Of a stretch of DNA of 64,000 nucleotides, positions 42,065 to 64,000 are shown piece by piece. Source of the stretch: Streptomyces sp. SAI-127 (GTDB lineage: Bacteria > Actinomycetota > Actinomycetes > Streptomycetales > Streptomycetaceae); the NCBI RefSeq assembly GCF_029894425.1, contig NZ_JARXYJ010000002.1:186001-250000 (forward strand), given 5' to 3'. The notes under the pieces are model-generated. The model saw only the letters and a list, made by a program, of their open reading frames with translations. It had not been told where the DNA came from and ran no database searches. Within the stretch, counting starts at the first letter, position 1. Every line of letters starts with the position of its first letter. Both the position numbers and the translations under genes were made by a program.

Positions 42065-43084
42065 ATGGTCCGCGCCATGCTGCAACTGACCGACGTGGAC
42101 GTGGCGGCACTCCTGGAGAAGACCGATGTCGTCGGCACCGTGCGTGAGGTGTTCCTGGCGCACGCGGCGGGCCGCACCGTGCTTCCCGAGGAGAGCTGCC
42201 TGCGGTGGACCAACGACGAGGGCGAGTCCTGCCGCAGCCTCAACATGCCTGGTCTGGTGGAGATCGACGGCCGACGGTTCGCCGGCACGAAAATCATCAA
42301 CGCGAGCCTGGGCAATCCCGCTCGGGGGCTGGCCCGTGCCGGTGGCCTGATCCTCCTCTTCGACCTCACCACCGCCCGGCCGGTGTGCGCCCTGGACGCG
42401 GCCCACATCTCCGCCGGGCGCACCGCGGCGGTCAGCGTGCTCGCCACCGAACTGCTGTGGGCGGCACCCGCGCGGGCCGTCGCCGTCGTCGGAGCCGGAG
42501 CACTGGCCGAAGCCCACCTGGACCTGGCGTTGCGCCGATGGCCCTCGGTCCGGCGGGTGCGGATCCACGACCGGGTCCGGGAACGCGCGGCGGCCCTCGC
42601 CGAACGCCTCGGGGACACGCACCGCACGGTCGCCTTCCACGTCACAGCCACCGCGGAGCAGGCGGTGCGCGAGGCGGATCTCGTCATCCCCGTGACCACC
42701 ACGACCAGCGGCTACATTCCCGCCGACTGGATCGCCGAGGGGGCCGTCGTCGTCAACGTGTCGCTCGACGACCTCACCCCCGAGGCGCTGAGCGCAGCCG
42801 ACCAGGTTGTCGTGGACGACTGGAGCCTGGTGGCGGCCGACACCACCCGGATCCTCGGCAGGATGCACCGTGCCGGGGACGTCCTGCCGCCACCGCGTCA
42901 CCGCGACCCGCAGGGTGCCCGGCCCCGGCCCGCTGTCGAGGTCACCGCCGAACTGTGCGACCTCGTCGGCGGATCCGCGGCCGGCCGCACCTCCGCCACG
43001 GACCGCGTCATCGTCAACCCCTTCGGCATGTCCCTGCACGACGTGGCGGTGGCGGGAAGGATCTATCAGGAATTCTTGACATAG
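42065..43084 (+). CDS. Ornithine cyclodeaminase/mu-crystallin family enzyme
   Basis: This protein of about 339 residues starts at ATG 42065; ATG 42077 is the alternative. Family marks are GTKIINASLGNPARGLARAG, HISAGRTAAVSVLATELL and the Rossmann motif AVAVVGAGALAEAHLDLAL, then ADLVIPVTTTTSGYIPADWI. In antibiotic clusters this family includes SbnB and VioK types, which help make 2,3-diaminopropionate, and true proline-forming cyclodeaminases. No cysteine-synthase-like SbnA partner is visible in the window, so the product is open. It is the first gene of the peptide cluster and is read toward the NRPS. Confidence 0.85.
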   Translation: MVRAMLQLTDVDVAALLEKTDVVGTVREVFLAHAAGRTVLPEESCLRWTNDEGESCRSLNMPGLVEIDGRRFAGTKIINASLGNPARGLARAGGLILLFDLTTARPVCALDAAHISAGRTAAVSVLATELLWAAPARAVAVVGAGALAEAHLDLALRRWPSVRRVRIHDRVRERAAALAERLGDTHRTVAFHVTATAEQAVREADLVIPVTTTTSGYIPADWIAEGAVVVNVSLDDLTPEALSAADQVVVDDWSLVAADTTRILGRMHRAGDVLPPPRHRDPQGARPRPAVEVTAELCDLVGGSAAGRTSATDRVIVNPFGMSLHDVAVAGRIYQEFLT

Positions 43085-43339
43085 CCAGCTCCTGCTCTGA
43101 CCGGCGACGTCACGGAACGAACCGTCATCGCCCGGTGGGGAGTGCGAAGCAGCGTTCGCTACGGCAGCGCAGAGCACACAGCAATCGGATTTTGTGCGGA
43201 TGTCGATGTCGAAGGATCGCGACCGATGGTGCCCGGAAACGGGCCGACTCGTCGGCAGCACCTTCTCAACGGGCCGAAGAGAACTTCTCGACGGCGTATC
43301 CGGAAATTCGCCGCATCATGGCATGAGAGGAACACCAGA

Positions 43340-44341
43340 ATGGACAGGCTGGAACTCGACCCGGCGGAGATCAGCGCGGTCGACGAACTCCTCGACGAGT
43401 GCGCGGACGCTTTCGCCACCCTCGACACCGAGGACGCCCTGCACCGGGCCACCGTGCTCGCCCACGAACTCCCCAACAGGATCCGCCTCCACCTCAACGC
43501 CTTCCGCCTGGAACAGCTCTCGGGCGTCCTGTGCGTCTCCGGCTACCGCGTCGACCAGACACGGCTGGGACCCACCCCGTCCCACTGGCGCAACCGGACC
43601 GGGCCGTCCCCCGCCCACCGGGAAGAACTGCTCCTCATGCTGTACAGCTCCCTGCTCGGCGACCCGTTCTGCTGGGCCACCCAGCAGGACGGCCGGATGA
43701 TCCACGACATCGTGCCCATCCAGGGCCACGAACACGAACAACTCGGCTCCAGTAGCGAGGCGTTGCTCACCTGGCACACCGAGGACGCCTTCCATCCGCT
43801 CCGCGGGGACTTCCTCTCCTTCGCCTGCCTGCGGAACCCCTACCGCGCCGCGACGACCGTCGGATACGCCGACGCGCTTCGGCTGCCGGACGACCTGCGG
43901 GAGGTCCTCCTCCAGGAGCGGTTCGTCATCTGCCCGGACGAGTCCCACCTCGGCAAGAACAACTCGCGCCCCACCGCGGGGGCGTTCGACACCATCGAGC
44001 GGATGCAGAAGGACCCCGACCGGGTGGCGGTCCTCTTCGGCGACCCGGAACAGCCCTATCTGAGGGCCGACCCCTACTTCATGCGCGTCGACGACGAGGA
44101 CGACGAGGCACGCCTCGCACTGGACGCCCTGGTGAAGGCGATGGACGAGGTGATGTTCGACGTCGTCCTCGAGAGCGGCGACTTCTGCTTCCTCGACAAC
44201 TTCCGTGTCGTCCACGGCCGCAAGCCGTTCAAGGCCCGCCACGACGGGACCGACCGCTGGCTGAAGCGCATCAACGTCACCGGCGACCTCCGCAAGTCCC
44301 GGGCCGCCCGGGAGGCCAGGGCAGTCCGGGCCAGCCGCTGA
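43340..44341 (+). CDS. Fe(II)/2-oxoglutarate arginine beta-hydroxylase, VioC-like
   Basis: The 333 residues belong to the clavaminate-synthase-like oxygenases. The iron triad is H146-T-E148 in LLTWHTEDAFHPLRGDF and H292 in NFRVVHGRKPF; the 2-oxoglutarate Arg is about 306 in GTDRWLKRINVTGDLRKS. This wording is that of VioC and its streptothricin counterpart, which hydroxylate free L-arginine at C3. The next gene is a VioD-like PLP enzyme, so the pair should convert arginine to capreomycidine. AsnO- or MppO-type specificity is the main alternative. Confidence 0.85.
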   Translation: MDRLELDPAEISAVDELLDECADAFATLDTEDALHRATVLAHELPNRIRLHLNAFRLEQLSGVLCVSGYRVDQTRLGPTPSHWRNRTGPSPAHREELLLMLYSSLLGDPFCWATQQDGRMIHDIVPIQGHEHEQLGSSSEALLTWHTEDAFHPLRGDFLSFACLRNPYRAATTVGYADALRLPDDLREVLLQERFVICPDESHLGKNNSRPTAGAFDTIERMQKDPDRVAVLFGDPEQPYLRADPYFMRVDDEDDEARLALDALVKAMDEVMFDVVLESGDFCFLDNFRVVHGRKPFKARHDGTDRWLKRINVTGDLRKSRAAREARAVRASR

Positions 44342-44368
44342 ATCCGACCCCGACATCGAGGCGACACC

Positions 44369-45484: not shown

Positions 45485-45519
45485 GCGTGCTTCGACCCCC
45501 GGTGGTCCCCCTGTGGGGG

Positions 45520-45555: not shown

Positions 45556-45596
45556 GCTGTCGCAGGGGACGTTCCCGCCCGGCCGCGACTGCCATA

Positions 45597-46910
45597 ATGA
45601 CCCGCGTGAACCGTGCGACAGCCTGGCATGACGCCTGGACAGGGACGCGAGGCCGGGTCGCGGCAGACCCCCGCGCACGGATGCTCGTCACGGTGTCGCT
45701 CGGCCTGCTGGCCGTCGCCGAATCACTCGTGGAGTTCGTCGCCTCGCACGGGTCCATCCCCCGCCTCTTCGCGGACACCGCCTCCACGGCCGCCCGGGAC
45801 GGCAGTTCCACCGGAGTACAGTTCACGATGATCGTGGGCCTGCTCTGCCTGTCCACCGCCCTGCCGCTCGCCCTCCTGCGGCCCCTGACAGCCGGCCTCA
45901 CCGTCACCGCCGCGAGCATCGGCTCGCTCACGATCTTCCACACCCTGACCCTGGCGGGCATCGCCGCCCAGCTCGTCGCCCAGTACCGGCTCGCCCGCAG
46001 CGGACTGGTCCTCGCGGCGGGGCTGTGCGGGGTGCCCTTCCTCGCGCTGGCGCTGCCCGCCTCCGACGACACTGCCTACCGGGTCCGGATCGTCCTGCTC
46101 GCGGCCCTTGTACCCGCGGTCGCTCTCGCGGGACTGGCCCGACGCGCCGGGGCACACCACCGCGAACACACCGCTGTCCGTGAGGTGATGGCCGGCACCC
46201 AGTGGGAGAACGCGGCCCGCGGCGAACGCGCCCGTATCGTCCGCGAGCTCCACGACGTGGTCGGCCACCACATCTCCATGATCGCCGTGCAGGCCGAGAC
46301 GGCCCGGGTCGCCACCGCCGGTATGCCCGCCCAGGGAGCCGAACGGCTGCTCGGTATCGGCGACACCGCCCGGGCCGCCCTCACCGAGATGCGCCGCCTG
46401 CTGGGCGTCCTCCGCGAGGACACCGAGTCCGTCACCGGTGGGGAGCGCCGACCGCAGCCGGACCTGCGCCGGCTCAACGAACTCCTCGACGAAGCCCGTA
46501 CGGCGTCCGGGACGTCCGTCCGGCTGATCCTGAGCGGATCCCCGCGCGAGCTCGACCCCGGCATCGAGCTCGCCGCCTACCGCATCGTCCAGGAGTCCCT
46601 GACCAACGCCCGCAAACACGCGACAGGTGCCGCCGTCGACGTCGAACTGCACTACGCCGACGATGCGTTGCACCTGCGGGTCCGCGACAACGGACCCGGC
46701 CCGCCCCTCGCGGCCACGGACGGGGGACACGGGCTGCTCGGCATGCGGGAACGCGCCGCAGCCGTCGGCGGAGACGTCCGTACCGGTCCCGCCGCCGGCG
46801 GCGGGTTCCGCGTCGAGGCGCGCTTTCCCGCTGCCCCGGACGGCGGGGCCTCCCGGGTGCCGACCCCGGTGGCACCCCGCCCGGAAGCCACAACGGAAGA
46901 GAGTTCATGA
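45597..46910 (+). CDS. Sensor histidine kinase, NarL/DesK type
   Basis: This protein of about 437 residues has an N-terminal membrane part with around five or six helices and a HisKA_3 dimerisation motif [20 protein letters not shown] (phospho-His about 219). An HATPase domain follows, with LTNARKHA and NGPGPP ... [13 protein letters not shown]. There is no obvious extracellular sensor domain, so the signal may be read in the membrane. CATAAT overlaps the ATG, so the true product may be leaderless from GTG 45606. Its stop overlaps the regulator gene (ATGA). Probably it governs this cluster. Confidence 0.9.
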
Positions 46911-47608
46911 GCACGCCCTCCGCGCCGATCCGGATCGTGATCGCCGACGACCACCTGGTGGTCCGCACCGGCTTCGCCGCGCTGCTGGACTCCCAGCCCG
47001 ACTTCACCGTCGTCGAGACCGCGTCCAACGGAACCGAGGCGGTGCGCGTCTGCCGCGAGAAGTCCCCCGACGTCGTGCTGATGGACATCCGGATGCCGGA
47101 GATGGACGGCATCGAGGCCACCCGCCAACTCGTCGGCGCCGCGCCTGACGCCGGCGGCGCACCGCGCGTCCTCATTCTCACCACCTTCGACCTCGACGAG
47201 TACGTCTACGACGCCCTGCGCGCCGGTGCCAGTGGCTTCCTCCTCAAGGAGGCCACGGCGGAACGCCTCTTCGACGCCGTACGTGTCGTCGCCGCCGGTG
47301 ACGCGCTCCTCGCACCCGGTATCACCCGTCGGCTCATCAGCGAGTTCGCCCTGATGCCCGCCAAGGCCGAGACCGGGCCTCCGCCCGGTCTGCAGGACCT
47401 CACGGCCCGTGAGACCGAGGTCATGCTGCTCATCGCCGAGGGCCTGTCCAACCCGGAGATCGCCGCCCGTCTCGTCGTCGGCGAGGAGACGGTCAAGACC
47501 CACGTCAGCCGCATCCTCACCAAGCTGGGGCTGCGCGACCGCACCCAGGCCGTCATCGCGGCGTACGAGTCCGGGCTCGTCGTCCCGCGCGTACGGAAAG
47601 CCGAATAG
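46907..47608 (+). CDS. Response regulator, NarL/LuxR family
   Basis: The 233 residues show a receiver domain ([20 protein letters not shown]; phospho-Asp about 60 in [13 protein letters not shown]; Lys in FLLKE) and a C-terminal LuxR helix-turn-helix ([20 protein letters not shown], then [20 protein letters not shown]). It is the cognate partner of the overlapping kinase gene. As the only DNA-binding regulator inside the visible cluster, it is the first candidate for the two matching inverted repeats at 41832 and 47670. Confidence 0.93.
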
Positions 47609-47821: not shown

Positions 47822-49783
47822 GTGAAAGTGACGGTGCAGGCGCCGGCGGGAGATAATCCCGACGAACTGCCGGACATGGGCCCGGAATCCGACCGGCCGC
47901 AGACATCCCAGGGAATTCGCCCCGGAACAGTGGGAAGAATTGTTCCGTTCGCGAAACCCTATCGGTGGCAGCTGTTGTTCCTGGTGACCGCGTCCGCACT
48001 CGGCGCCGTCGTGACCGCGGCCGGCCCGCTGCTTTTCGGGGTCGTCATCGACAAGGGCATCGTCCCCGGCAAGACGGACGTCGTCATCGCGGTGGCCGCC
48101 GCCCTCCTCGGCCTCGCCCTCCTCGACGCGCTGACCCAGTACTTCCAGGCCAGACTCTCCGCGCAGATCGGCGAGGGCCTGGTGTACGACCTGCGCACCC
48201 TGGTGTTCCGGCATGTGCAGGCACAGCCGCTGGCGTTCTTCACCCGCTCCCAGACCGGCTCCCTGGTCAGCCGGCTCAACACCGACGTCATCGGAGCGCA
48301 GCAGGCGATCACCGTGCTGATGGCGGAAACGGTCAACACCGTGCTGACCCTGGTCCTGGTGCTGGCCGCCATGTTCTACCTGTCGTGGCAGCTCAGCCTC
48401 GTGGCCCTGCTCATGGTCCCCTTCTTCCTCATCCCCGGAAAGATCATCGGCCGCCGTATGCAGAGCCTCGCCCGCGGGACGATGCAACTCAACGCGGAGA
48501 TGGGCTCCTTGATGAACGAGCGCTTCAACGTCGCCGGCGCGATGCTCAACAAGCTCTTCGGGCGCCCCGAGCGCGAGGTAGCCCACTTCTCCGAACGGGC
48601 CCGAGGCGTCCGCGACATCGGCGTGCAGACCAACGTGACCGCGCAGATGCTCGGCATCGTCATGGGCCTCACCGCCTCAGTGACCCTCGCCCTGCTCTTC
48701 GGCGTCGGCGGGCTCCTCGTCATCGACGACGCCTTCGCCCTCGGCACCCTGGTCTCCCTGGTCACGCTCGTCGGCCGCCTCTACACCCCGATCCAGCAGC
48801 TGTCGAGCGTGCAGGCCAACGCCATGACCGCCCTCGTCAGCTTCGACCGCGTCTTCGAGATCCTCGACCTCGACGCCCTGGTGAAGGAACGTCCCGGAGC
48901 CACCTCGCTGCGCTCCGGCCCCTCGGCACACGACACCACCGCGCCCGAGGTCGAGTTCGACAAGGTCTCCTTTCGCTACCCCAGTGCCGCCGACGTCTCC
49001 CTGGCCTCCTTGGAGTCGACCGCCCGGCCCGCCGGCGAACGCGAGGACGACGCGTGGGTCCTCGACGAGGTGAGCTTCCGGGCGCCCGCGGGGAAACTCA
49101 CCGCCCTCGTCGGCCGCTCGGGAGCCGGCAAGACCACCATCACCCACCTGATGCCCCGCTTCTACGACCCCGTCGCCGGGGCGGTGCGGATCGACGGCCA
49201 GGACCTGCGTGACGTCACTCTCGGCTCGCTGCAGGACACCGTCGGAGTCGTCACCCAGGACGCCCACCTCTTCCACGACACCATCCGCCACAACCTGCTG
49301 TACGCCCGCCCGGACGCCACCGAACCGGAGCTCGTCGAGGCCTGCGAGGCGGCACAGATCTGGACCCACATCGCCGCCCTCCCCAACGGGCTCGACACTG
49401 TCGTAGGGGACCGCGGCTATCGTCTGTCGGGCGGGGAGAAACAGCGCTTGGCGCTGGCCCGGCTGCTGCTGAAGGCACCGCCCGTGGTTGTGCTCGACGA
49501 GGCCACCGCCCACCTGGACTCGGAGTCGGAGGCCGCGATCCAACGCGCCCTGAAGACCGCGCTGGCAGGCCGCACCTCGGTGGTCATCGCCCACCGGCTG
49601 TCCACCATCCGCGAGGCCGACCAGATCCTCGTCGTCGACGGCGGCAGGATCCGCGAGCGCGGCACCCACGAGTCGCTCCTGTCCGTCGGCGGCCTCTACG
49701 CGGATCTGTACCACACGCAGTTCGCCCGGCAGCCGACCGCCGGGGAGGCGGCCGCACCCGACCCCGCGGGCACCGCGAGCTGA
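47822..49783 (+). CDS. ABC exporter, fused membrane and ATPase domains
   Basis: This protein of about 653 residues starts at GTG 47822 with GAGGAGAGG in good position. The N-terminal six-helix exporter domain (WQLLFLVTASALGAVVTAAG ... QTGSLVSRLNTDVIGAQQAI) is followed by an ATPase domain with Walker A GRSGAGKTT, signature LSGGEKQR, Walker B VVVLDEATAHLD and switch His IAHRLSTI. Half-size exporters of this type act as homodimers and commonly secrete the cluster product and give self-resistance. It is preceded by candidate operator 2. Confidence 0.92.
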   Translation: MKVTVQAPAGDNPDELPDMGPESDRPQTSQGIRPGTVGRIVPFAKPYRWQLLFLVTASALGAVVTAAGPLLFGVVIDKGIVPGKTDVVIAVAAALLGLALLDALTQYFQARLSAQIGEGLVYDLRTLVFRHVQAQPLAFFTRSQTGSLVSRLNTDVIGAQQAITVLMAETVNTVLTLVLVLAAMFYLSWQLSLVALLMVPFFLIPGKIIGRRMQSLARGTMQLNAEMGSLMNERFNVAGAMLNKLFGRPEREVAHFSERARGVRDIGVQTNVTAQMLGIVMGLTASVTLALLFGVGGLLVIDDAFALGTLVSLVTLVGRLYTPIQQLSSVQANAMTALVSFDRVFEILDLDALVKERPGATSLRSGPSAHDTTAPEVEFDKVSFRYPSAADVSLASLESTARPAGEREDDAWVLDEVSFRAPAGKLTALVGRSGAGKTTITHLMPRFYDPVAGAVRIDGQDLRDVTLGSLQDTVGVVTQDAHLFHDTIRHNLLYARPDATEPELVEACEAAQIWTHIAALPNGLDTVVGDRGYRLSGGEKQRLALARLLLKAPPVVVLDEATAHLDSESEAAIQRALKTALAGRTSVVIAHRLSTIREADQILVVDGGRIRERGTHESLLSVGGLYADLYHTQFARQPTAGEAAAPDPAGTAS

Positions 49784-49912: not shown

Positions 49913-50137
49913 GTGCGCACTGTGAGCTTCGACTTCGAAACCCCCGGAAAGCGGTTCAAGGTACTGATCAACCACGAGGAGCAGTACTCGCTGTGGCCGG
50001 CCGACCTCGACGTGCCGGGCGGCTGGGAGGAGACCGGCGTGTGCGCCTCCAAGGAGGAGTGCGACCAGTACCTGGAGGAGACCTGGACCGACATGCGGCC
50101 CAAGAGCCTGCGCCTCGCGCTCGACGGTGAGCAGTAG
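49913..50137 (+). CDS. MbtH-like protein
   Basis: The 74 residues from GTG 49913 (GAGGAGA upstream) match the MbtH family: FKVLINHEEQYSLWPADLDV, PGGWEETG, CDQYLEETWTDMRPKSLR, including the three conserved Trp. MbtH proteins bind and activate NRPS adenylation domains. It lies between the exporter and the NRPS and most likely serves the NRPS encoded about 0.9 kb downstream. Confidence 0.95.
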   Translation: MRTVSFDFETPGKRFKVLINHEEQYSLWPADLDVPGGWEETGVCASKEECDQYLEETWTDMRPKSLRLALDGEQ

Positions 50138-50145
50138 GCGACCGG

Positions 50146-57000: not shown

Positions 57001-60000
57001 CGCACCGCTGCCCCTGCAGTACGCGGACTTCGCGGCCTGGCAGCGGCAGTGGCTGACCGGTGCCGCGCTCGCCTCGCAGCTCGCCTACTGGGTCGATCAG
57101 CTGGCAGACCTCCCGGAGCTGGAGCTGCCGGTTGACCGAAAGCGCCCGCCCGTGCGGTCGGCCGAGGGCGCGGTGCTGCGGTTCACCGTCCCCGCGCACA
57201 CCACCGAGGCCCTGCGGAGGCTGTCCCGTACGCATGACTCGACGATGTTCATGACGCTGCTGGCCGCGCTCGGCGTGCTGCTCGGCCGCTACGGCGGCGC
57301 CGAGGACGTGGCGGTCGGCACCCCGGTGGCGAACCGGAACCGTGCCGAGACCGAGGATTTGATCGGCTTCTTCGTCAACACACTGGTCATGCGGACCGAC
57401 CTGTCCGGTGATCCCACGTTCGCCGAACTCCTCGCCCGGGTACGGGAGATGGCCCTCGGCGCGTTCACCCACCAGGACCTGCCGTTCGAGCAGCTGGTGG
57501 ACGAGCTGGTCGTCGAGCGGGACCGCTCCCGTACCCCCTTGTTCCAGGTCATGTTCAACTACGCCACGTGGGAGGCCGGGGACGTCCTGACCGACGTGCT
57601 GCCCGCCAAGTACGACCTCCTCGTCACGGTCGGCGACACCGGCGGCGACCACGGTCTCAGCTGCGAGATGCAGTACAGCACCGCCTTGTTCGACGCGACC
57701 ACGATCGACCGGATGACCGGGCACTTCGTGAGCCTGCTGGAGAGGGTGGCCGAGGCCCCGGAGCGGCCGTTGTCGCAGGTGCCGACGCTGCCGGCGCACG
57801 AGCTGGATCTGCTGGCCGCCGAGTGGCACGGCGGCGCCGTCCCCGACCTCGTCGCCCGCGGGGTGCACGAGCTGGTCGCCGACCGGGCCGCGGCCCGTCC
57901 CGACTCCGTGGCCCTGGTCTGCGGTGAGCGAAGGCTGACGTACGGCGGGCTGGTGGAACGCGCCAACCGGCTCGCCCACCGGCTGCGTGACGCGGGCGTG
58001 GGCACCGAGTCGGTGGTCGGGCTGTGCCTGGACCGAGGTGTCGACACCGTCGTGGCGATGCTGGCCGTATGGCAGGCCGGAGGGGCCTGGCTGTCCGTCG
58101 ATCCCCAGTACCCGGCCGAACGGCTGGAGTTCATGCTCGCCGACAGCCGTGCCGCGCTCGTGGTGACACAGGACCACCACGCCGGCCTACTGCCCGACGG
58201 CGTGGCGCCCCTCCTGGTGCTCGACGATCCGGCGACGGCCGCCGCGATCAGCACGGGCCCGCACACCGCCCCCAGGGGGGCGCCCCACCCGGAACAGCTC
58301 GCTTACGTGATCTACACCTCCGGTTCCACCGGCCGGCCCAAGGCCGTCCAGGTCGCGCATGCGAGCGTGATCCGTCTGTTCGAGGCCGCTGAAGCCTGCG
58401 GCGCACTCACGCTCCCACCGGAAAGCGTGTGGAGTGTCAGCCACTCCTTCGCCTTCGACTTCTCGGTCTGGGAGGTCTGGGGTCCTCTGACTCGGGGCGC
58501 CCGCAGTGTCGTCGTGCCCATGGACCGTGTGCGCGAGCCTTGGCGGCTGCGCGAGGTGCTGGCTGCCGAGGGTGTCACCCACCTGAGTGCCACACCGGAG
58601 TTGTTCCGCCAGCTGTCCGAAGCGGTCGAGCCCGGGCGCGACCTGCCCGCGCTCGGGTTCGTGGTGTTCGGCGGTGACGTGCTTCAGCGCCCGCACGTGG
58701 CCCGCTGGAGCGCGGCACACGGCCTGGACACCCCCGCCCTGGTCAACATGTACGGGATCACCGAGACGACGGTGCACGTCACCCACCACCGCATCGGTTC
58801 CGCGGACCTCGCGGGCGATCCGGGGCTGCCGGTGGGGCGAGGGCTTCCCGGCTGGCGGGTGTACGTGCTCGACGAACGGCTCCACCCCGTACCGGTGGGC
58901 GTGCCGGGCGAGCTGTACATCGGCGGCGCCGGTGTCGCCCGCGGATACGGCGGCCGGGCGGCGCTGACCGCGGAGCGGTTCCTCGCGGATCCCTTCGCCG
59001 GGGACGGTACGCGGATGTACCGCTCCGGAGACCGGGCGCGCCGACTGCCGGGCGGGGTGCTGGAGTTCGTGGGCCGTGGGGACAAGCAGGTCAAGGTGCG
59101 CGGGTTCCGGATCGAGCCGGGCGAGATCGAGGCCCGGCTGACCGCTCATCCGGGCGTACGCTCCGCGGTGGTCACGGCCCACGGCGACGGCGCGCACCGC
59201 CTGCTCGCGGCCTACCTGGTCCCCGCGGACCACTCCTTGGGCGTCCCGGCGGCGGCCGAGCTGCGGGAACACCTGCGGCACGGGCTGCCGGACTTCATGG
59301 TCCCGTCCGCCTTCGTCGAGCTGGCCGCGTTGCCGCTGACCGCGAACGGCAAGCTCGACCGGGCCGCGCTGCCCGTGCCGCAACCGCACCACGGGGAACG
59401 GCCCCTGGCGGAAAGGGCGTCGGACGGTGACGGTTTCGTGGCGCCGAGAGGCCCGTCGGAGGAACTGCTGGCCGGCATCTGGGCCCATGTGCTCGACGTG
59501 GAGCGGGTCGGCGCCCACGACAACTTCTTCGAGCTGGGTGGACACTCACTGCTGGCGACCCAGGTCGTGTTCCGCATCCGTGAGGCGTTCTCGGTCGAGC
59601 TGCCTCTCGCCGACCTGTTCGACCGGCCGACGGTACGCGACCTGGCGCCGCTCCTGGACCGCTCGGATGCCGGCATCATCGTGCCGCGCATGGCACGGGT
59701 CGACCGGGACCGTCCGCTGCCACTGTCGTTCGCCCAGCAACGCCTGTGGTTCCTCGACCAGTTGGAGCCCGGTTCCGTCGAGTACGCGCTGCTGTCCCCG
59801 GTGCACTGGAACGGACACCTGGACGTCGCCGCGCTCCGGGCGGCCCTGGGCGGGATGGTCACACGGCACGAGGTGCTGCGGACCCGGCTCGTCGCGGACG
59901 CCGACGGGGTTCCCCGGCAGGTGATCGATCCGCCGCACCCGTTCGTGCTGCCCGTGGTGGACGTCTCCACCGGTACGGACCCCGCAGCGGTCGCACGGCG

Positions 60001-63000
60001 CCTGGTCGCGGCGGACGCCGGAGTGCCGTTCGACCTTGCGGCCGGTCCGCTGGTGCGGGCCACACTGATCAGTCTGGCCCGCGAGGAACATGTGCTGGCA
60101 CTCGCCATCCACCACGTGGTGTTCGACGAGTGGTCCGACCGGATCTTCCACCGTGAGTTGATGGCGCTGTACGAGGCGTTCCGTGCGGGGGAGTCCGATC
60201 CGCTGCCGGCGCTGGAGGTGCAGTACGCGGACTTCGCGGTGTGGCAGCGGCAGTGGCTGGACGGTGACGTGCTGGAGCGGCAGCTGTCGTACTGGCGTGA
60301 GCGTCTGTCCGCGGCTCCGGACACCGAACTCCCCATCGACCGGCCCCGTCCGCCCGTGCGCTCGTCCGCGGGGGCCCGGTGGCGGTTCGCCCTTCCCCAG
60401 GAGGTCGTCGAGGGCCTGCGGGGGTTGTCGCGTGAGTGTGGTGTGTCGATGTTCATGACGCTGCTGGCGGCGTATGCGGTGTTGTTGGGTCGGTATGCGG
60501 GGTCGGAGGACGTGGTGGTGGGCACGCCGGTGGCGAACCGGAACCGTGCCGAGACGGAGGATCTGATCGGGTTCTTCGTGAACACGTTGGTGATGCGGGC
60601 GGATCTGTCGGGGGATCCGTCGTTCCGTGAGGTGTTGGGGAGGGTGCGGGAGACGGCGCTGGGTGCGTATGCGCATCAGGATGTGCCGTTCGAGCAGGTG
60701 GTGGACGCGTTGGTGGCCGAGCGGGACCGGTCGCGCACGCCGCTGTTCCAGGCCCTGCTCAACTACGACTTCGTCGAGAGCGACGCGCCCCGCTCGGCCA
60801 CCGGGCAGACGGTCGACCGCAGCGGCAGCGCCGCCGACGTCGTCGCGAAGTACGACCTGCGACTGGTGCTCAGTGACGACGGACACGGCCTGGATGCCGA
60901 GTTCGAGTACAGCCGCGCGCTCTTCGACGCGACGACCGTGGAGCAGATGGCGGACCACCTCGTCACCCTGCTGAGCGCCGTGGCCACGGACGCGGACCGC
61001 ACCCTGTCACGGCTGCCCGTGCTGCCGGCCCACGAACTGGACCGGCTGCTCAGGGAGTGGAACGACGCCGAGGTCCCCGTCCCCCCGGCGGGCGGCGTAC
61101 CCGAACTGATCGCCGAGCGCGCAGCGACGGCCGCGGACACGGTGGCGGTGGTCTCCGGTGACCACACGCTGACCTACGGCGCCCTCGTCGCCCGCGCCCA
61201 CCGGCTGGCCCACTACCTGCGGGCCGTCGGCGTCGGCGCGGAATCGGTCGTGGCGCTGTGTCTGCCCCGCGGAGCCGACATGATCGTGACCGTCCTGGCC
61301 GTGTGGCAGGCCGGAGGAGCGTATCTGCCGCTGGACCCCGAGTACCCGGCCGAACGCCTCGGCTTCATGCTCACCGACAGCGGCGCAGAAGTGGTGATCG
61401 GCACCGAGGACCTGGTCGACGAACTCCCGGTCGGCCGGCTGCGCACGGTCGTCCTCGACGACCCCTCGGTGCGCGCCGTTCTGGACGCGCAGCCCACCGA
61501 GGCCCCCGACGTCGCTGTCCTCCCGGGCCAACTCGCCTACGTCATCTACACGTCGGGCTCCACCGGCCGGCCCAAGGGCGTGCAGGTCACGCACGGCGGG
61601 GCGCTGAACTACGTCGTCTCCGTGGTGGACCGGGCCGGCTGGGGCGCCGGCGAGCGGTTCGGACTGCTGCAGCCCGCCGTCACCGACCTCGGCAACACCG
61701 TCGTGTTCGGCTGCCTCGCGTCCGGTGGCGTCCTGCACATCCTCGACGGGGACGTCGCGCTCGACGGCCGTGCCGTCGCGGGCTACCTGGCCGGCTGGGC
61801 GGTGGACTGGGTCAAGGTGGTGCCGTCCCACCTGGCGGCCCTGGCCGCCGACGCCGGCGTGGAGGGGCTGATCCCCGGTCGGGGCCTCATGCTGGGCGGG
61901 GAGGGAGCCTCGCCGGTCTGGCTGGGCGGCCTGCTGGAGGCCGCCGGAGAACGGGCCGTCGTCAACCACTACGGCCCGACCGAGGCAACGGTCGGCGTGG
62001 TCGCCGGCCGACTCGATGCAGGAGTGCTGGCCGACGGTGTGGTGCCGCTGGGGACCCCCTTGGCCAACACCCGCGTCTACGTGCTCGACGCCGCCCTGCG
62101 CCCGGTGCCGATCGGCATGGTGGGTGAGCTGTACGTCGCGGGCCCCCAGGTGGCGCGCGGCTACCGGGGCCGGCCCGCGCTGACGGCGGAGCGGTTCGTG
62201 CCCGACGCCTTCGCCGGCGACGGCACCCGCATGTACCGTACCGGCGACCGCGCACGGTGGCGTGCGGACGGCCGCCTGGAGTTCCTGGGCCGCATCGACG
62301 CCCAGCTCAAGGTGCGTGGGTACCGTGTCGAGCCCGGCGAGGTGGAGGCGGCACTCGTCTCCCACGCCCTGGTGCGCTCGGCCGTCGTGACCGCCCGGGG
62401 CGAGGGACGGGGACGCCGCCTGGTGGCCTACCTGGTGCCGGCCGACCATGACGAGGGACTGCCGCCGGTGGCGGAACTGCGCGCGTACGCGGGCTCACGC
62501 CTGCCCGAGCACATGGTGCCCTCGGTCTTCGTCGAGCTCGGGGAGTTCCCCCTCACCGCCAACGGCAAGCTCGATCGAGCCGCCCTGCCCGAACCGGACG
62601 CCGAGGAGTCCGAGACCGGTACATACACTCCGTCGGTCACCGCCACCGAGGAACTCCTGACCGGCATATGGTCCGACGTCCTGGGGATCGGCCGGGTGGG
62701 AACCCTCGACGACTTCTTCGACCTGGGCGGGCATTCCCTGCTCGCCACCCAGGTGATCTCCCGGATCCGTGAGGTGTTCGGCACCGAGGTGCCGTTGTCG
62801 GCCCTGTTCGACGCGCCGACGGTGCGCGGGTTCGCCGCGGTGGTCGACAACTCGGCCGCGGGTCTCGCCGTACCCCCTGTGACCGCGGTGGACCGGGACC
62901 GTACGCTGCCGTTGTCGTTCGGCCAGCAACGCCTGTGGTTCCTCGAGCAGTTGGGCGGCGGGTCGCCCGAGTACAACCTCACGGCGGGCATCCGCCTCGA

Positions 63001-64000
63001 CGGCGACCTGGATGCGTCGGCGCTGCAGGCGGCGCTGAGCCGGATCACGGCCCGGCACGAGGTGCTGCGCACCCGTCTGGTGGCGGGCGCGGACGGGCTG
63101 GCGACCCAGGTGATCGACCCGCCGCGCCCCTTCCCCCTGCCGGTCGTCGACGTGTCCGACACGTCGCAGCCGGAAGCGGCCGCACGTGCCCTGGCCGCGG
63201 CGGACGCCGCCCTGCCCTTCGACCTGTCGGCCGGCCCGCTGATCCGCGGAGTCCTGGTCACGGTCGCCGCCGACCGGCACCTGCTGGCCCTGGCGATGCA
63301 CCACGCCGTGTCCGACGAGTGGTCCGGCCGACTTCTGCGCGGCGAACTGACCGCCCTGTACGAGGCGTTCCGGGCGGGCCGGCCCGATCCGCTGCCGCCG
63401 TTGGCGGTGCAGTACGCCGACTTCGCCCTCTGGCAGCGCCAGTGGCTGGACGGCGACGTCCTGCGGAGCCAACTCGACTACTGGCGCGCCCAGTTGGCCG
63501 GTGCACCCGTACTGGAACTGCCCACCGACCGGCCCCGCCCGGCGGTGCGTTCCAGCGAGGGCGGGGTCGTCGACTTCCGCGTCCCCGTGGACACGGCCCG
63601 CCGACTGCGCGAGCTGACCCGCGGCAACGGCGCCACGATGTCCATGACGCTGCTGGCCGCGTTCAGCGTGCTGCTGGGCCGCTACGCGGGCTCGCGGGAC
63701 GTGGTGGTCGGCACGCCGGTGGCGAACCGGAACCGTGCCGAGACCGAGGATCTGATCGGGTTCTTCGTGAACACCCTGGTCCTGCGGACCGATCTGTCCG
63801 GTGATCCCACGTTCGCCGAACTCCTCGCCCGGGTTCGGGAGACGGCGCTCGGCGCGTACGCACACCAGGACCTGCCGTTCGAGCAGCTTGTGGAAGAACT
63901 CGTCGTCGAGCGGGACCGCTCCCGCAGCCCCCTGTTCCAGGTCCTGTTCAACTACGACACCGCCGACACGGACAAGCCCGACATGGCACCGGGCAGTCCG
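51011..64000 (+). CDS. Multimodular nonribosomal peptide synthetase (open at the right edge)
   Basis: The frame is open from ATG 51011 (TGGGGGC upstream) to the window end: 4,330 codons without a stop. Domain order is half-C, A1-T1, C2-A2-T2, C3-A3-T3, C4-A4-T4, C5 (cut). Carrier serines lie in LGGHSLL at about residues 751, 1777, 2846 and 3909. The four complete C-domain active sites read HHxxxDEW at about 946, 1966, 3034 and 4097. No epimerase, methyltransferase or thioesterase domain is present so far. The pocket residues suggest Thr-like for A3 and Asp-like for A4; A1 and A2 are nearly identical to each other and unassigned. Capreomycidine is presumably loaded by a later module. Confidence 0.96.
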   Translation, partial: MHGEPNSWRDQSADLPALELPTDRPRATGGPTRTAVVRFDVPPTTAQRLRELSRTGGTNVRTLVLAALSVLMGRYAGTDDVVVAEDGAVARTDLSGEPSFAELPGRIHATTGGSTRHPVRFSCTGPGDRGEPEAASDLLLHVSDAQHGFLSGEFRYDTALFDTATVERTARHLLALIETAAEHPHRCVHELAVLMPDERDALIRAGDGPALALPPAAGVHELIAHWAARSPDAVAVVSGDRVLTYGALLARANRLAHRLRGMGVGPESVVGLCLERGADMVVAVLAVWQAGGAYLPLDPAYPAQRLEYMLADSGATVLVGGSGQVEALPADRVVRLEDRYLWEALPSSAPDTEARPAQLAYVIYTSGSTGQPKGVQVAHAGLLNLAVAFRPVLGAAPGTRALQFASLSFDAAVLDVAMTLAAGGTLVVASSTDRAQPGSLETLVRAQAVTMASVSPSLLGVLEPGALADVGAMLVGSERVGTQVARDWAPGRRLVNGYGPTETSVIACVGPVDADAPGAPPIGGPLPNTRVYVLDPTLEPVPVGAVGELFIAGPQLARGYGGRAALTGERFVADPFAADGSRMYRSGDRVRWLADGRLEFVTRADGQLKVRGFRVEPGEVEEALAAHEGVRAVAVTAFGEGEARRLAAYVVPSDPALGMPPVDTLRDLAGRRLPDFMVPSAFVELTALPLTTNGKLDRSALPAPEHAQLTQGPYVAPVTRTEEVLAGIWARLLGVDRVGARDSFFELGGHSLLAAQVMSRIRQTFGVELPLAVLFEQPTVRQLAAAVADAAGATGAPAGTGAPVFEAVGRGDEALPLSFGQQRLWFLDQLDPGSAEYNLPLRLHIDHTLDVPALQAALDTVLARHEALRTRLAPGQDGTVYQAIDEPAPFPLPVVDVSAAPAPRRECQRLAHQEAMAPFDLANGPLIRAVLIRSAPDDHLLALSAHHAVFDEWSDLVLQRELWALYAAFRAGRPNPLPPLPVQYADFAVWQRRSLTGDVLDDQLAYWRTQLADMSMPQLPTDRPRPLVRPTEGAVTRFTVPAHTAEALRTVAREHGATMFMTLLAAFDVLLGKYTGTQDVVVGTPVANRNRAETEDLIGFFVNTLVMRTDLSGDPTFRELLGRVRETALGAYAHQDLPFEQLVDTLVTERDRSRSPLFQTMFSYGTTGGAYVNPGTLPVKCDLALRLVESGDGLLGEIEYSTALFDAGTVERLSGHLVRLLEAVAEDAGRRVGELPVLSVDERERVVRGWNGAQAALPSVGGVHELIAARANKAPDAVAVVSGGRTLTYGGLVARASRLAHVLRGRGVGAESVVGLCLPRGVDMVVAVLGVWLAGGTYLPLDPEYPVERLEFMVADSGAQVVLREGDLVLSEDLPSAAPDNAVAPGQLAYVIYTSGSTGRPKGVQVSHGSVVGMVTALGSELGAEAGVRVLQFASFSFDAAVLDVAVTLAHGGTLVVASAGERAEPDALTSMICAEGVGAASVVPSLLGVLDPERVRGIERLLLGAERLTEQVARAWAPGRRLVNTYGPTEATVMVTAGAVDGSEGVPPIGLPVANARLYVLDTSLHPVPVGVVGEVFIAGPQVARGYAGRPGLTGERFLPDLFAADGSRMYRSGDRARWLPDGRLDFVGRADQQVKVRGFRIEPGEIEAVLTTHPRIRTAVVVPFGDEDDRRLVAYLVPEDAAEGIPTVTDLRTHAGAHLPAFMIPSVFTPIDTLPLTPNGKLDRSALPEPERRGLSGYVQPASPTEELLAGVWSRLLGVARLGVTDNFFELGGHSLLATRVGSRIRDLLSVDVPLSAVFDRPTVRELAALVDRSARGTAVPPVTAVDRDRPLPLSFAQQRLWFLDQLEPGSAEYTIALPVWLRGEKPDVEALGAALGAIVARHEVLRTRLVVGADGVPYQCVDAPSGFPLPLVDVSGEPDPVGAARELVAGDAAVPFDLAQGPLVRATLVRLAPDQHVLAVTVHHVVFDEWSDRVFRRELSAFYEAFQNVQPVPLAPLPLQYADFAAWQRQWLTGAALASQLAYWVDQLADLPELELPVDRKRPPVRSAEGAVLRFTVPAHTTEALRRLSRTHDSTMFMTLLAALGVLLGRYGGAEDVAVGTPVANRNRAETEDLIGFFVNTLVMRTDLSGDPTFAELLARVREMALGAFTHQDLPFEQLVDELVVERDRSRTPLFQVMFNYATWEAGDVLTDVLPAKYDLLVTVGDTGGDHGLSCEMQYSTALFDATTIDRMTGHFVSLLERVAEAPERPLSQVPTLPAHELDLLAAEWHGGAVPDLVARGVHELVADRAAARPDSVALVCGERRLTYGGLVERANRLAHRLRDAGVGTESVVGLCLDRGVDTVVAMLAVWQAGGAWLSVDPQYPAERLEFMLADSRAALVVTQDHHAGLLPDGVAPLLVLDDPATAAAISTGPHTAPRGAPHPEQLAYVIYTSGSTGRPKAVQVAHASVIRLFEAAEACGALTLPPESVWSVSHSFAFDFSVWEVWGPLTRGARSVVVPMDRVREPWRLREVLAAEGVTHLSATPELFRQLSEAVEPGRDLPALGFVVFGGDVLQRPHVARWSAAHGLDTPALVNMYGITETTVHVTHHRIGSADLAGDPGLPVGRGLPGWRVYVLDERLHPVPVGVPGELYIGGAGVARGYGGRAALTAERFLADPFAGDGTRMYRSGDRARRLPGGVLEFVGRGDKQVKVRGFRIEPGEIEARLTAHPGVRSAVVTAHGDGAHRLLAAYLVPADHSLGVPAAAELREHLRHGLPDFMVPSAFVELAALPLTANGKLDRAALPVPQPHHGERPLAERASDGDGFVAPRGPSEELLAGIWAHVLDVERVGAHDNFFELGGHSLLATQVVFRIREAFSVELPLADLFDRPTVRDLAPLLDRSDAGIIVPRMARVDRDRPLPLSFAQQRLWFLDQLEPGSVEYALLSPVHWNGHLDVAALRAALGGMVTRHEVLRTRLVADADGVPRQVIDPPHPFVLPVVDVSTGTDPAAVARRLVAADAGVPFDLAAGPLVRATLISLAREEHVLALAIHHVVFDEWSDRIFHRELMALYEAFRAGESDPLPALEVQYADFAVWQRQWLDGDVLERQLSYWRERLSAAPDTELPIDRPRPPVRSSAGARWRFALPQEVVEGLRGLSRECGVSMFMTLLAAYAVLLGRYAGSEDVVVGTPVANRNRAETEDLIGFFVNTLVMRADLSGDPSFREVLGRVRETALGAYAHQDVPFEQVVDALVAERDRSRTPLFQALLNYDFVESDAPRSATGQTVDRSGSAADVVAKYDLRLVLSDDGHGLDAEFEYSRALFDATTVEQMADHLVTLLSAVATDADRTLSRLPVLPAHELDRLLREWNDAEVPVPPAGGVPELIAERAATAADTVAVVSGDHTLTYGALVARAHRLAHYLRAVGVGAESVVALCLPRGADMIVTVLAVWQAGGAYLPLDPEYPAERLGFMLTDSGAEVVIGTEDLVDELPVGRLRTVVLDDPSVRAVLDAQPTEAPDVAVLPGQLAYVIYTSGSTGRPKGVQVTHGGALNYVVSVVDRAGWGAGERFGLLQPAVTDLGNTVVFGCLASGGVLHILDGDVALDGRAVAGYLAGWAVDWVKVVPSHLAALAADAGVEGLIPGRGLMLGGEGASPVWLGGLLEAAGERAVVNHYGPTEATVGVVAGRLDAGVLADGVVPLGTPLANTRVYVLDAALRPVPIGMVGELYVAGPQVARGYRGRPALTAERFVPDAFAGDGTRMYRTGDRARWRADGRLEFLGRIDAQLKVRGYRVEPGEVEAALVSHALVRSAVVTARGEGRGRRLVAYLVPADHDEGLPPVAELRAYAGSRLPEHMVPSVFVELGEFPLTANGKLDRAALPEPDAEESETGTYTPSVTATEELLTGIWSDVLGIGRVGTLDDFFDLGGHSLLATQVISRIREVFGTEVPLSALFDAPTVRGFAAVVDNSAAGLAVPPVTAVDRDRTLPLSFGQQRLWFLEQLGGGSPEYNLTAGIRLDGDLDASALQAALSRITARHEVLRTRLVAGADGLATQVIDPPRPFPLPVVDVSDTSQPEAAARALAAADAALPFDLSAGPLIRGVLVTVAADRHLLALAMHHAVSDEWSGRLLRGELTALYEAFRAGRPDPLPPLAVQYADFALWQRQWLDGDVLRSQLDYWRAQLAGAPVLELPTDRPRPAVRSSEGGVVDFRVPVDTARRLRELTRGNGATMSMTLLAAFSVLLGRYAGSRDVVVGTPVANRNRAETEDLIGFFVNTLVLRTDLSGDPTFAELLARVRETALGAYAHQDLPFEQLVEELVVERDRSRSPLFQVLFNYDTADTDKPDMAPGSP
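51040..51600 (+). other. NRPS: truncated condensation domain (C-terminal lobe only)
   Basis: The protein starts at the LELPTDRPRA linker that normally lies in the middle of a C domain, then shows LVLAALSVLMGRYAGTDDVV and TALFDTATVERTARHLL. The N-terminal lobe with HHxxxDG is absent. The GTPVANRNR block that should follow DDVVV is also missing. It cannot condense and is probably a relic that makes module 1 the loading module. Confidence 0.8.
51650..53115 (+). other. NRPS: adenylation domain A1
   Basis: Core motifs include YVIYTSGSTGQPKGVQV, NGYGPTETS, MYRSGDRVRW and NGKLDR. The pocket read by alignment to GrsA is about D-A-L-S-L-G-G-V-I-K. It does not match a code I know with certainty; a hydrophobic or aromatic residue is most likely. 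Confidence 0.8.
53150..53390 (+). other. NRPS: carrier domain T1
   Basis: The FFELGGHSLLAAQVMSRIR motif has the phosphopantetheine Ser at codon 53261 (residue about 751). Confidence 0.85.
53440..54690 (+). other. NRPS: condensation domain C2
   Basis: It begins PLSFGQQRLWFLDQLDPGSA and has the active site HHAVFDEWS (residue about 946), then GTPVANRNRAETEDLIGFFV. No LxxTxE/Dual signature is seen, so a standard L-L condensing type is likely. The Gly of HHxxxDG is Glu. Confidence 0.8.
54770..56200 (+). other. NRPS: adenylation domain A2
   Basis: Motifs include YVIYTSGSTGRPKGVQV, NTYGPTEAT, MYRSGDRARW and NGKLDR. The pocket is about D-A-L-S-L-G-T-V-M-K, differing from A1 at only two positions, so both probably activate related residues. 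Much of 54590-55640 uses G/T-ending codons, unlike its flanks. Confidence 0.8.
56225..56455 (+). other. NRPS: carrier domain T2
   Basis: NFFELGGHSLLATRV has the pantetheine Ser at codon 56339 (residue about 1777). Confidence 0.85.
56500..57790 (+). other. NRPS: condensation domain C3
   Basis: PLSFAQQRLWFLDQLEPGSA opens the domain; the active site is HHVVFDEWS (residue about 1966). The later part is nearly identical in DNA to C5 (for example GTCCGGTGATCCCACGTTCG). Confidence 0.8.
57855..59370 (+). other. NRPS: adenylation domain A3, Thr-like pocket
   Basis: This domain differs from its neighbours, with SFAFDFSVWEVWGPL and NMYGITETTVHV. The pocket is about D-F-W-S-V-G-M-V-H-K, close to the common threonine code DFWNIGMVHK. 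Threonine or a beta-hydroxy analogue is predicted. Confidence 0.75.
59435..59670 (+). other. NRPS: carrier domain T3
   Basis: NFFELGGHSLLATQV has the pantetheine Ser at codon 59546 (residue about 2846). Confidence 0.85.
59700..61020 (+). other. NRPS: condensation domain C4
   Basis: PLSFAQQRLWFLDQLEPGSV opens the domain; the active site is HHVVFDEWS (residue about 3034). The section 60420-60730 switches abruptly to G/T-ending codons, a sign of recombination. Confidence 0.8.
61090..62590 (+). other. NRPS: adenylation domain A4, Asp-like pocket
   Basis: Key segments are QPAVTDLGNTVVFG, VKVVPSHLAAL, GLMLGGEG and NHYGPTEATVGV. The pocket is about D-L-T-K-M-G-H-V-G-K, one or two residues from the aspartate code DLTKVGHIGK; the His favours Asp over Asn. 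Confidence 0.75.
62630..62860 (+). other. NRPS: carrier domain T4
   Basis: DFFDLGGHSLLATQV has the pantetheine Ser at codon 62735 (residue about 3909). Confidence 0.85.
62880..64000 (+). other. NRPS: condensation domain C5, cut by the window end
   Basis: PLSFGQQRLWFLEQLGGGSP opens the domain; the active site is HHAVSDEWS (residue about 4097) and LFNYDTADTDKPDM is near the window edge. At least one more module follows. Confidence 0.8.

What the first reader, a model, noticed from the sequence alone, without database searches (positions are those of the whole stretch)
42065..64000. NRPS cluster with a capreomycidine supply pathway, product unknown
Seen: a VioC-like hydroxylase (HTE...H triad), a VioD-like PLP enzyme (APLEDWL...DISSSGVHSY), an ornithine-cyclodeaminase relative, a two-component system, an exporter, MbtH, and a large NRPS in one direction. 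Known: VioC and VioD make capreomycidine from arginine in viomycin; the streptothricin pathway uses homologues. Inferred: the NRPS makes a linear or cyclic peptide that contains capreomycidine and at least five residues, starting X-X-Thr-Asp. The predicted opening does not match viomycin, capreomycin, streptothricin, muraymycin or chymostatin as I know them, so it may be a new peptide.
Basis: partly seen in the sequence, partly recalled or inferred. Interest (0 to 1): 0.85.

Follow-up and report, generated by a model that had tools for sequence, protein, structure and literature searches.

The report
Giant 24-module peptide assembly line
A Streptomyces gene cluster seems to build an unusually long non-ribosomal peptide (probably 24 building blocks) from rare amino acids, including a cyclic-arginine relative, and no known product was found to match it.

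Summary
The finding is real but is only the left edge of something larger. Right of the window lie the rest of four NRPS proteins (A-D: 6, 2, 7, 9 modules; 24 in all), then genes for Dpg (DpgA-C), Hpg, a Dap-type pathway and a carbamoyltransferase. VioD passes the capreomycidine-synthase cut-off (536 vs 390.9 bits); the hydroxylase narrowly passes VioC (427.8 vs 418.6) but has streptothricin OrfP-type pocket residues, so hydroxy-capreomycidine stays open. The line recurs in two other single-contig Streptomyces genomes; Actinomadura oligospora has a counterpart with 24 adenylation domains. Only A starts with a defunct condensation domain, only C has a thioesterase, and D's acidic tail suits C's beta-hairpin docking domain. 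I infer the order A-B-D-C: one 24-residue, arylglycine-rich cationic peptide, about 3.2 kDa before tailoring. A 15-mer from A-B-C, D apart, is the main rival. Product, residues and order are inferred, not shown.

The parts
42065..43084 (+). SbnB/ornithine-cyclodeaminase-like gene, predicted half of a 2,3-diaminopropionate pathway
   Evidence: TIGR03944 SbnB 211.8 bits, below cut-off 326.9; left end of the conserved block in G109 and G098
43340..44341 (+). VioC/OrfP-type Fe(II)/2-oxoglutarate arginine hydroxylase
   Evidence: TIGR03946 427.8 bits (cut-off 418.6), NF041363 GntD 467 (345); PDB 4m23 (OrfP by recall) 334, VioC 276 bits; triad H/E/H and OrfP-type Q/G/Y residues
44369..45484 (+). VioD-type PLP capreomycidine synthase
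   Evidence: TIGR03947 536 bits, cut-off 390.9; K219, the presumed PLP lysine, invariant in 17 aligned sequences
45681..46910 (+). sensor histidine kinase
   Evidence: conserved in G109, G098
46907..47608 (+). NarL-type response regulator
47822..49783 (+). MsbA-type ABC exporter
   Evidence: TIGR02203 428 bits (below cut-off 602); conserved in G109, G098
49922..50137 (+). MbtH-like protein
   Evidence: sequence and recalled family; no NCBIfam hit at E 1e-5; 80% (G098) and 87% (G109) identical in relatives
50146..50943 (+). alpha/beta hydrolase, possible editing thioesterase
   Evidence: 82-85% identical in relatives
51011..64000 (+). NRPS protein A, modules 1 to 4 and the condensation domain of module 5; the gene runs on to position 70591 in extended window coordinates (6526 aa, 6 modules, C-terminal epimerase)
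51011..51610 (+). degenerate half condensation domain at the start of protein A (no HHxxxD motif): marks the starter module
   Evidence: Pfam Condensation, best stretch covers profile positions 198-275 of 456; no HH motif; similar starts, by eye, in G109, G098 and A. nitritigenes
51653..53380 (+). module 1 A-T, code DALSLGGVIK (arylglycine, Hpg candidate); approximate limits
53378..56455 (+). module 2 C-A-T, code DALSLGTVMK (Dpg predicted); approximate limits
56453..59665 (+). module 3 C-A-T, code DFWSVGMVHK (Thr, recalled); approximate limits
59663..62860 (+). module 4 C-A-T, code DLTKMGHVGK (Asp, recalled); approximate limits

Best explanation
This is the left edge of one biosynthetic cluster of about 111-114 kb that makes a long, arylglycine-rich, cationic non-ribosomal peptide. 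Shown by sequence: four NRPS proteins with 24 modules; five epimerase domains (after M6, M10, M17, M18, M20, in gene order), each followed by a condensation domain of a different motif type (DCL by recall); one thioesterase, at the end of C; genes for capreomycidine (or its hydroxy form), Dpg, Hpg and, less firmly, Dap/ureidoalanine; a CmlA-type diiron beta-hydroxylase, an FkbM methyltransferase, a PMT-type glycosyltransferase and transporters. Inferred: the chain starts on A (its condensation domain is only a remnant), passes through its terminal epimerase to B, then to D, whose acidic C-terminal strand (EYEEFEL) docks on the beta-hairpin domain of C, and is released by C's thioesterase. Predicted order: [Hpg/Dpg]-Dpg-Thr-Asp-[Hpg/Dpg]-D-Cap-Cap-Dpg | Asp-D-Tyr-D-Dpg-Phe-D-[Leu-like]-Gly-Gly-Gln-[Phe/Tyr] | Tyr-D-Dpg-Dpg-[Dap/Uda/Cap]-Dpg-Gly-[Phe/Tyr]; about 3.2 kDa before tailoring. 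Likely use: an exported antibiotic, by analogy with Hpg-rich peptides such as ramoplanin and feglymycin; no activity evidence.
For: 24 carrier and 24 adenylation domains. The line recurs in G109 and G098 with 6/2/7/9 adenylation domains each; codes are identical in all three at 14 of 24 positions. DpgA/B/C over cut-offs (644/425, 316/140, 718/530 bits). The six DALSLGTVMK domains group (0.884) with five DALSVG[T/A]VIK domains of G542, M1/M5 as sister (0.986); G542's 16-module line has eight such domains in all, two DALHLGLLCK (recalled Hpg code) domains and both Hpg and Dpg genes. M6/M7 group at 0.994 with DVGE[VL]TA[IV]DK domains from VioC/VioD clusters of Actinomadura and Catenulispora; no SbnA/SbnB/carbamoyltransferase homologue was found in the 180 kb and 80 kb read of the two Actinomadura clusters. 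TubC_N docking domain on C, 40.5 bits. D's acidic tail is kept in 5 of 5 D-type proteins read, and passages of PMC6195595 and PMC9113145 describe the last five residues of such a tail pairing with the beta-hairpin. A. oligospora has a D/A/B/C set with 24 adenylation domains.
Against: Residue labels rest on recalled code rules; M6/M7 read DVGEATAVDK or DVGEGSAVDK depending on the alignment. M12 groups only weakly (0.38), with putative Cap domains of other clusters, so Cap and Dap could be swapped. The protein order is indirect: B and C are adjacent genes in both genera, A. oligospora has the gene order D-A-B-C, and a docking strand can be dispensable in vivo (PMC13324335 passages); PMC6195595 also says TubC's own domain is dimeric and binds differently. 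SbnA, SbnB and carbamoyltransferase scores are below curated cut-offs. No canonical Hpg code occurs in the line although Hpg-type genes are there. No dedicated DpgD was found among the cluster proteins scanned. No product data.
Confidence: 0.55

Rival explanations
1. Two products or a branch: A-B-C make a 15-residue peptide released by C's thioesterase, and the nine-module protein D acts separately, is unused, or makes a second peptide released in trans.
For: A, B and C overlap by a few bases; D lies behind the FkbM gene. C's docking domain could instead accept B, which also ends in a carrier domain with a conserved tail. D begins with a full condensation domain of its own.
Against: D has no release domain, and no starter or lipid genes were recognised by eye among the cluster proteins. 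Its acidic tail is kept in 5 of 5 D-type proteins in two genera, and D sits in the same conserved block in all three Streptomyces read.
Confidence: 0.25
2. The order is D-A-B-C: D starts the chain and A continues it, giving a 24-residue peptide with a different sequence.
For: Gene order D-A-B-C in A. oligospora.
Against: A's first condensation domain is a degenerate half without the HHxxxD motif here, with similar starts by eye in G109, G098 and A. nitritigenes, so it should not accept a chain.
Confidence: 0.1
3. The cyclic-arginine residue is 4-hydroxycapreomycidine (streptothricin-like) rather than capreomycidine, or enduracididine-related.
For: The hydroxylase has Q/G/Y where VioC and CmnC have L/S/D (residues defined in PMC9513391, passages); it scores higher with OrfP-type 4m23 than with VioC (334 vs 276 bits) and with GntD.
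Against: VioD is far over the capreomycidine-synthase cut-off and shares a 0.935 clade with the viomycin-like G018/G127, apart from a group I take, without proof, to be streptothricin-like. Q/G/Y is in 19 of 30 hydroxylase rows and L/S/D in 2 of 30, so Q/G/Y may be the ancestral state.
Confidence: 0.3
4. The cluster makes an already described antibiotic whose gene cluster is not in the collections searched.
For: MIBiG and antiSMASH were not available; subscription papers are mostly missing from the library.
Against: No characterised peptide that I recall combines Cap, Dpg, Hpg and 15-24 residues. Searches listed only one software paper and one review holding both Cap and (di)hydroxyphenylglycine; neither was read.
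Confidence: 0.1

Closest known systems
Viomycin/capreomycin (tuberactinomycin) clusters, here represented by unnamed G018 and G127 (my reading of their gene sets)
   Same: VioC-, VioD-, SbnA-, SbnB- and carbamoyltransferase-type genes together (identities 37-61%)
   Different: Those have few modules, a different presumed Cap code (DPQDVGIVNK, assignment recalled) and hydroxylase residues L/S/D; here 24 modules plus Hpg/Dpg genes and residues Q/G/Y
Ramoplanin/enduracidin lipodepsipeptides (recalled; 17 residues and a fatty-acid tail per an abstract in the listing)
   Same: Hpg supply, MbtH, alpha/beta hydrolase, regulator, exporter, PMT-type glycosyltransferase, D-residues, C-terminal thioesterase (ramoplanin side recalled)
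   Different: No lipid-starter genes recognised by eye; Dpg and Cap supply; 24 rather than 17 modules; different predicted sequence
Feglymycin-like Hpg/Dpg lines; nearest read here is the 16-module line of G542
   Same: Presumed Dpg adenylation domains of one clade, DpgA-C and HmO-HpgT fusion, related exporter
   Different: No VioC/VioD homologue seen in the 140 kb read of G542; fewer modules; different order. Feglymycin has 13 residues (PMC5133696 passages)
Faulknamycin/cyclofaulknamycin (flk), D-capreomycidine hexapeptides
   Same: VioC-type hydroxylase and a D-Cap residue
   Different: Six modules and the PLP enzyme encoded outside the cluster (PMC8399532 passages); here 24 modules with VioD next to VioC
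Actinomadura oligospora and A. nitritigenes clusters (L015, L016 and flanks)
   Same: VioC, VioD, CmlA, MbtH, hydrolase; tandem DVGE..DVGE modules; A- and D-type proteins with similar ends in both, B- and C-type in A. oligospora
   Different: No Hpg, Dpg or Dap gene homologues seen in the stretches read; other residues; gene order D-A-B-C in A. oligospora

Membership tests
Capreomycidine (VioC/VioD) supply pathway | PLP capreomycidine synthase | tested here: met
   TIGR03947 536 vs 390.9 bits
Capreomycidine (VioC/VioD) supply pathway | Fe(II)/2-oxoglutarate arginine hydroxylase with intact triad | tested here: met
   TIGR03946 427.8 vs 418.6 bits; H/E/H
Capreomycidine (VioC/VioD) supply pathway | VioC/CmnC-type pocket residues L/S/D | tested here: not met
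   Q/G/Y as in OrfP
Capreomycidine (VioC/VioD) supply pathway | Enzyme product is capreomycidine | not testable with these tools
   needs enzyme assay
Multimodular NRPS | C-A-T modules with release domain | tested here: met
   24 A and 24 T; thioesterase 53.7 bits at the end of C
Tuberactinomycin cluster | SbnA, SbnB and carbamoyltransferase with VioC/VioD | tested here: inconclusive
   homologues present but below NCBIfam cut-offs
Tuberactinomycin cluster | short pentapeptide-type line | tested here: not met
   24 modules
Ramoplanin-type lipodepsipeptide | lipid-initiating condensation domain and fatty-acid genes | tested here: inconclusive
   half condensation domain on A; D's first condensation domain was not typed; no acyl-ligase or ACP recognised by eye
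Ramoplanin-type lipodepsipeptide | 17-module line with known sequence | tested here: not met
   24 modules and other codes
Vancomycin-type glycopeptide | seven modules with P450 cross-linking enzymes | tested here: not met
   24 modules; no P450 recognised by eye among the proteins printed, not profiled for all
Dpg pathway | DpgA, DpgB, DpgC | tested here: met
   644/425, 316/140, 718/530 bits
Dpg pathway | DpgD | tested here: inconclusive
   of eight cluster proteins scanned only DpgC touches the DpgD model, weakly; rest of genome not searched
Hpg pathway | HmaS, HmO, HpgT, prephenate dehydrogenase | tested here: inconclusive
   HPPD-family 316.6 bits, FMN_dh-aminotransferase fusion, PDH; HmaS not told from HPPD by model

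The most novel reading that the evidence does not exclude
A family of about 24-residue non-ribosomal peptides spans at least Streptomyces and Actinomadura, built by four proteins read out of gene order (A-B-D-C through a strand-to-hairpin dock), with a conserved adjacent pair of cyclic-guanidine residues (Cap-Cap, the first D in Streptomyces). In Streptomyces it is set in a chain of up to eight Hpg/Dpg residues. It would be among the longest peptides assigned to actinobacterial NRPSs (recalled comparison) and a cationic arylglycine scaffold of an undescribed type.
Probability: 0.4. Interest if true: 0.78.

Novelty: new variant of a known kind. Interest (0 to 1): 0.62.

Why it matters
Hpg- and Dpg-rich peptides include cell-wall antibiotics, and cyclic guanidines occur in ribosome- and cell-wall-targeting ones (recalled). 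A conserved line joining both, more than three times longer than vancomycin's seven modules, is a concrete discovery target with a predicted mass and sequence. It also offers a clean test of whether a docking pair can override gene order in a very large NRPS, and of a possible new Cap-type adenylation code (DVGExTAxDK).

Tried and rejected
Code look-up in papers: no paper held the codes searched. Looking for known giant lines returned mainly Pseudomonas syringopeptin papers and reviews (20 listed of 110); none of the listed papers held the word trigintamicin, which I recall as a 30-residue peptide. A plain collinear A-B-C-D line was rejected because D has no release domain and C has one. That the cluster is a viomycin, streptothricin, ramoplanin or glycopeptide cluster was rejected on module number and codes. 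That the M17 and M22 condensation domains are dead, because a pattern missed them, was rejected: they read HHVVSDD. That the contig is a known plasmid: the first 20 kb of the window matched 53 plasmid records, none over 80% of the query, the five listed covering 11-12%, so this is not settled. Of the Nonomuraea, Dactylosporangium, Actinoplanes and Catenulispora relatives only parts were read, no whole line. The DpgC class search gave hits in 392 of 394 genomes because of general hydratase similarity; only the 12 of 394 over cut-off (own genome included) were considered, and five loci in four of the other genomes were read, four of those loci put in the tree. VioC and VioD trees: hits shorter than 75% of the query or with stops were dropped; 30 and 36 rows kept, some of them the same gene fetched twice.

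Full report
WHERE IT IS. The window is G000:C2:186001-250000, + strand, in a genome of 10,720,516 bases and 3 contigs; contig C2 has 383,814 bases. The nearest named relative of the VioD gene is in Streptomyces pseudovenezuelae DSM 40212 (98%), then S. humi MUSC 119 (92%). I read C2:166001-369000. Coordinates below are window coordinates, extended past 64000.

OBSERVATION. All named genes are present. The VioD-type protein scores 536 bits against TIGR03947 (cut-off 390.9). The hydroxylase scores 427.8 against VioC TIGR03946 (cut-off 418.6) and 467 against GntD NF041363 (cut-off 345). The cyclodeaminase relative scores 211.8 against SbnB (cut-off 326.9, not reached).

THE WHOLE LINE. NRPS A 51011-70591 (6526 aa), B 70588-76983 (2131 aa), C 76980-101384 (8134 aa), D from about 102239 or 102344 to 135040 (10.9 kaa). 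Carrier motifs number 6+2+7+9 = 24 and adenylation domains 24. An FkbM-type methyltransferase lies between C and D. After D come an ABC transporter set, an SbnA-like protein (269.7 bits, cut-off 349.95), an ornithine-carbamoyltransferase-like protein (232.9, cut-off 280.85), a CmlA-type diiron hydroxylase (CmlA_N 282.5), an HPPD-family protein (316.6, cut-off 277), an FMN-dehydrogenase/aminotransferase fusion, DpgA, DpgB, DpgC (all over cut-off), a prephenate dehydrogenase, an HTH regulator that I call StrR-like from recall (Pfam shows HTH_23), and a PMT-type glycosyltransferase.

CODES (substrate labels are recalled rules unless said). Gene order M1-M24: DALSLGGVIK, DALSLGTVMK, DFWSVGMVHK (Thr), DLTKMGHVGK (Asp), DALSLGGVIK, DVGEATAVDK, DVGEATAVDK, DALSLGTVMK, DASTVAAVCK (Tyr), DALSLGTVMK, DALSLGTVMK, DAEDIGAITK, DALSLGTVMK, DILQLGMIWK (Gly), DAWTFAAVCK (Phe-like), DLTKMGHIGK (Asp), DASTVAAVCK (Tyr), DALSLGTVMK, DAWTVAAVCK (Phe), DAWFLGVIAK (Leu-like), DILQLGMIWK, DILQLGMIWK (Gly, Gly), DAWQFGLIDK (Gln), DAWTFAAVCK. 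In another alignment M6/M7 read DVGEGSAVDK, so two or three of their letters are uncertain.

CONSERVATION. A VioD-type match at E <= 1e-80 occurs in 20 of 392 Streptomyces genomes, own genome included. I read the full neighbourhood in two single-contig ones, G109 and G098. Both have the block from SbnB to the regulator in the same order and 6/2/7/9 adenylation domains. Codes are identical in all three lines at 14 of 24 positions; M5 in G098 is DALSLGTVMK, and M15 and M24 vary among aromatic-type codes. In G098 the start of B is not in one open frame with the rest (1604 aa), and the prephenate dehydrogenase was not found in the 140 kb read. The glycosyltransferase lies left of the block in G098 (72%) and right of it here, and is weak in G109 (38%). 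Sixteen genes from 25396 to 41570 were tested: none was found in the roughly 11.6 kb left of the block in G109 and G098; only the Rieske-protein gene was found in the 7-8 kb held left of the block in S. pseudovenezuelae and S. humi. So I place the left limit at 42065.

DPG AND HPG. The window line's six DALSLGTVMK domains join five of those eight (the others had not been fetched when the tree was made) in one clade (0.884), with M1/M5 as sister group (0.986). By elimination I read the DALS..TV group as Dpg and M1/M5 as Hpg or Dpg. This is inference.

CYCLIC GUANIDINE AND DAP. M6/M7 group at 0.994 with DVGE[VL]TA[IV]DK domains of A. oligospora, A. nitritigenes and a Catenulispora MAG, all from loci with VioC and VioD genes. 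In the stretches read of the two Actinomadura clusters no SbnA, SbnB or carbamoyltransferase homologue was found at E 1e-15. M6-type domains at E <= 1e-135 occur in 4 of 392 Streptomyces genomes, all four among the 20 with VioD; that search scored only four candidates per genome. I therefore read M6/M7 as Cap and M12 as Dap or ureidoalanine. Against this, M12 falls, with 0.38 support only, beside DVEE/SAEE domains of other VioC/VioD clusters, and both Actinomadura lines have further DAGD/DVGD-type codes that could also load a basic residue.

HYDROXYLASE. The metal triad is intact. PMC9513391 (passages) names three positions, L/S/D in CmnC/VioC and Q/G/Y in OrfP. The window protein has Q/G/Y, and so do all six homologues above 60% identity; over all 30 rows Q/G/Y is in 19 and L/S/D in 2, the viomycin-like G018 and G127. 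The product may thus be capreomycidine or hydroxy-capreomycidine.

STEREOCHEMISTRY AND ORDER. Epimerases follow M6, M10, M17, M18 and M20, and each is followed by a condensation domain of HHLLLDGWS or HHMLLDGWS type. A begins with a half condensation domain without a catalytic motif; starts that look the same by eye are in G109, G098 and A. nitritigenes. A ends in an epimerase and B begins with the matching condensation domain. C begins with a TubC_N docking domain (40.5 bits) and ends with a thioesterase (53.7 bits). D ends EYEEFEL here, EYEAFEL in G109, EYEEFDL in G098, DYEEFVF in A. oligospora and EFEEFEF in A. nitritigenes. Passages of PMC9113145 and PMC6195595 say that the last five residues of such a tail form a strand on the beta-hairpin with salt bridges; C's presumed second strand is basic (GRLRVFAP). 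Against D between B and C: B and C are neighbouring genes in both genera, and B has a conserved tail of its own. PMC13324335 (passages) reports that such a tail can be dispensable in vivo, and PMC6195595 that TubC's own domain is a dimer with a different binding site. I favour A-B-D-C.

ACTINOMADURA COUNTERPART. In A. oligospora, 180 kb read as one stretch hold D-, A-, B- and C-type proteins with 8, 4, 6 and 6 adenylation domains (24; carrier motifs 25), similar protein ends, and TubC_N-like and thioesterase-like ends on C (by eye, not profiled). So the architecture is not confined to Streptomyces; the residues differ.

LITERATURE. Papers were searched. Of PMC8399532, PMC9513391, PMC5133696, PMC9113145, PMC6195595 and PMC13324335 I saw passages, of PMC6710260 passages and section 10; the others only as search listings. 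PMC6710260 reports soil clusters found with VioD primers; the section read names no product.

MASS. With Hpg at M1/M5, Cap at M6/M7 and Dap, Uda or Cap at M12, the linear untailored 24-mer would be 3211, 3254 or 3279 Da, and the 15-mer 2119, 2162 or 2187 Da.

Noticed in passing
window 40711-41004 (-): A 97-aa open frame carrying only part of an Aconitase_C domain, beside the cluster's left edge; looks like the remnant of a larger gene.
   Followed up: partly
window 41079-41570 (-): Rieske [2Fe-2S] protein gene just left of the cluster, found beside it in S. pseudovenezuelae and S. humi but not in G109 or G098.
   Followed up: partly
window 17285-19645 (-): A 786-aa called frame joins an AlkZ-like DNA glycosylase match (residues 32-282) with an MFS-transporter match (661-773); fusion or calling error not resolved.
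   Followed up: no
window 4899-7280: An FAD oxidoreductase and sigma-70 factor pair is 84-91% identical to stretches on the five Streptomyces and Embleya plasmid records listed, perhaps a mobile pair.
   Followed up: no
L022 3-1273; G070:C67:115100-116370: In Streptomyces sp. or43 (L022) and in unnamed G070 the VioD homologue appears as two overlapping pieces: broken gene or assembly error.
   Followed up: no
   Followed up: partly
L020, L021, L024-L027, L032: Cyanobacterial contigs (and one labelled Gracilibacteria) encode VioD relatives, six of seven paired with VioC relatives, 45-50% identical, some beside NRPS domains.
   Followed up: no
P0021: UniRef lists a 70% identical VioD-type protein, B8YGQ2, from Catenulispora yoronensis; its cluster and product were not traced.
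   Followed up: no
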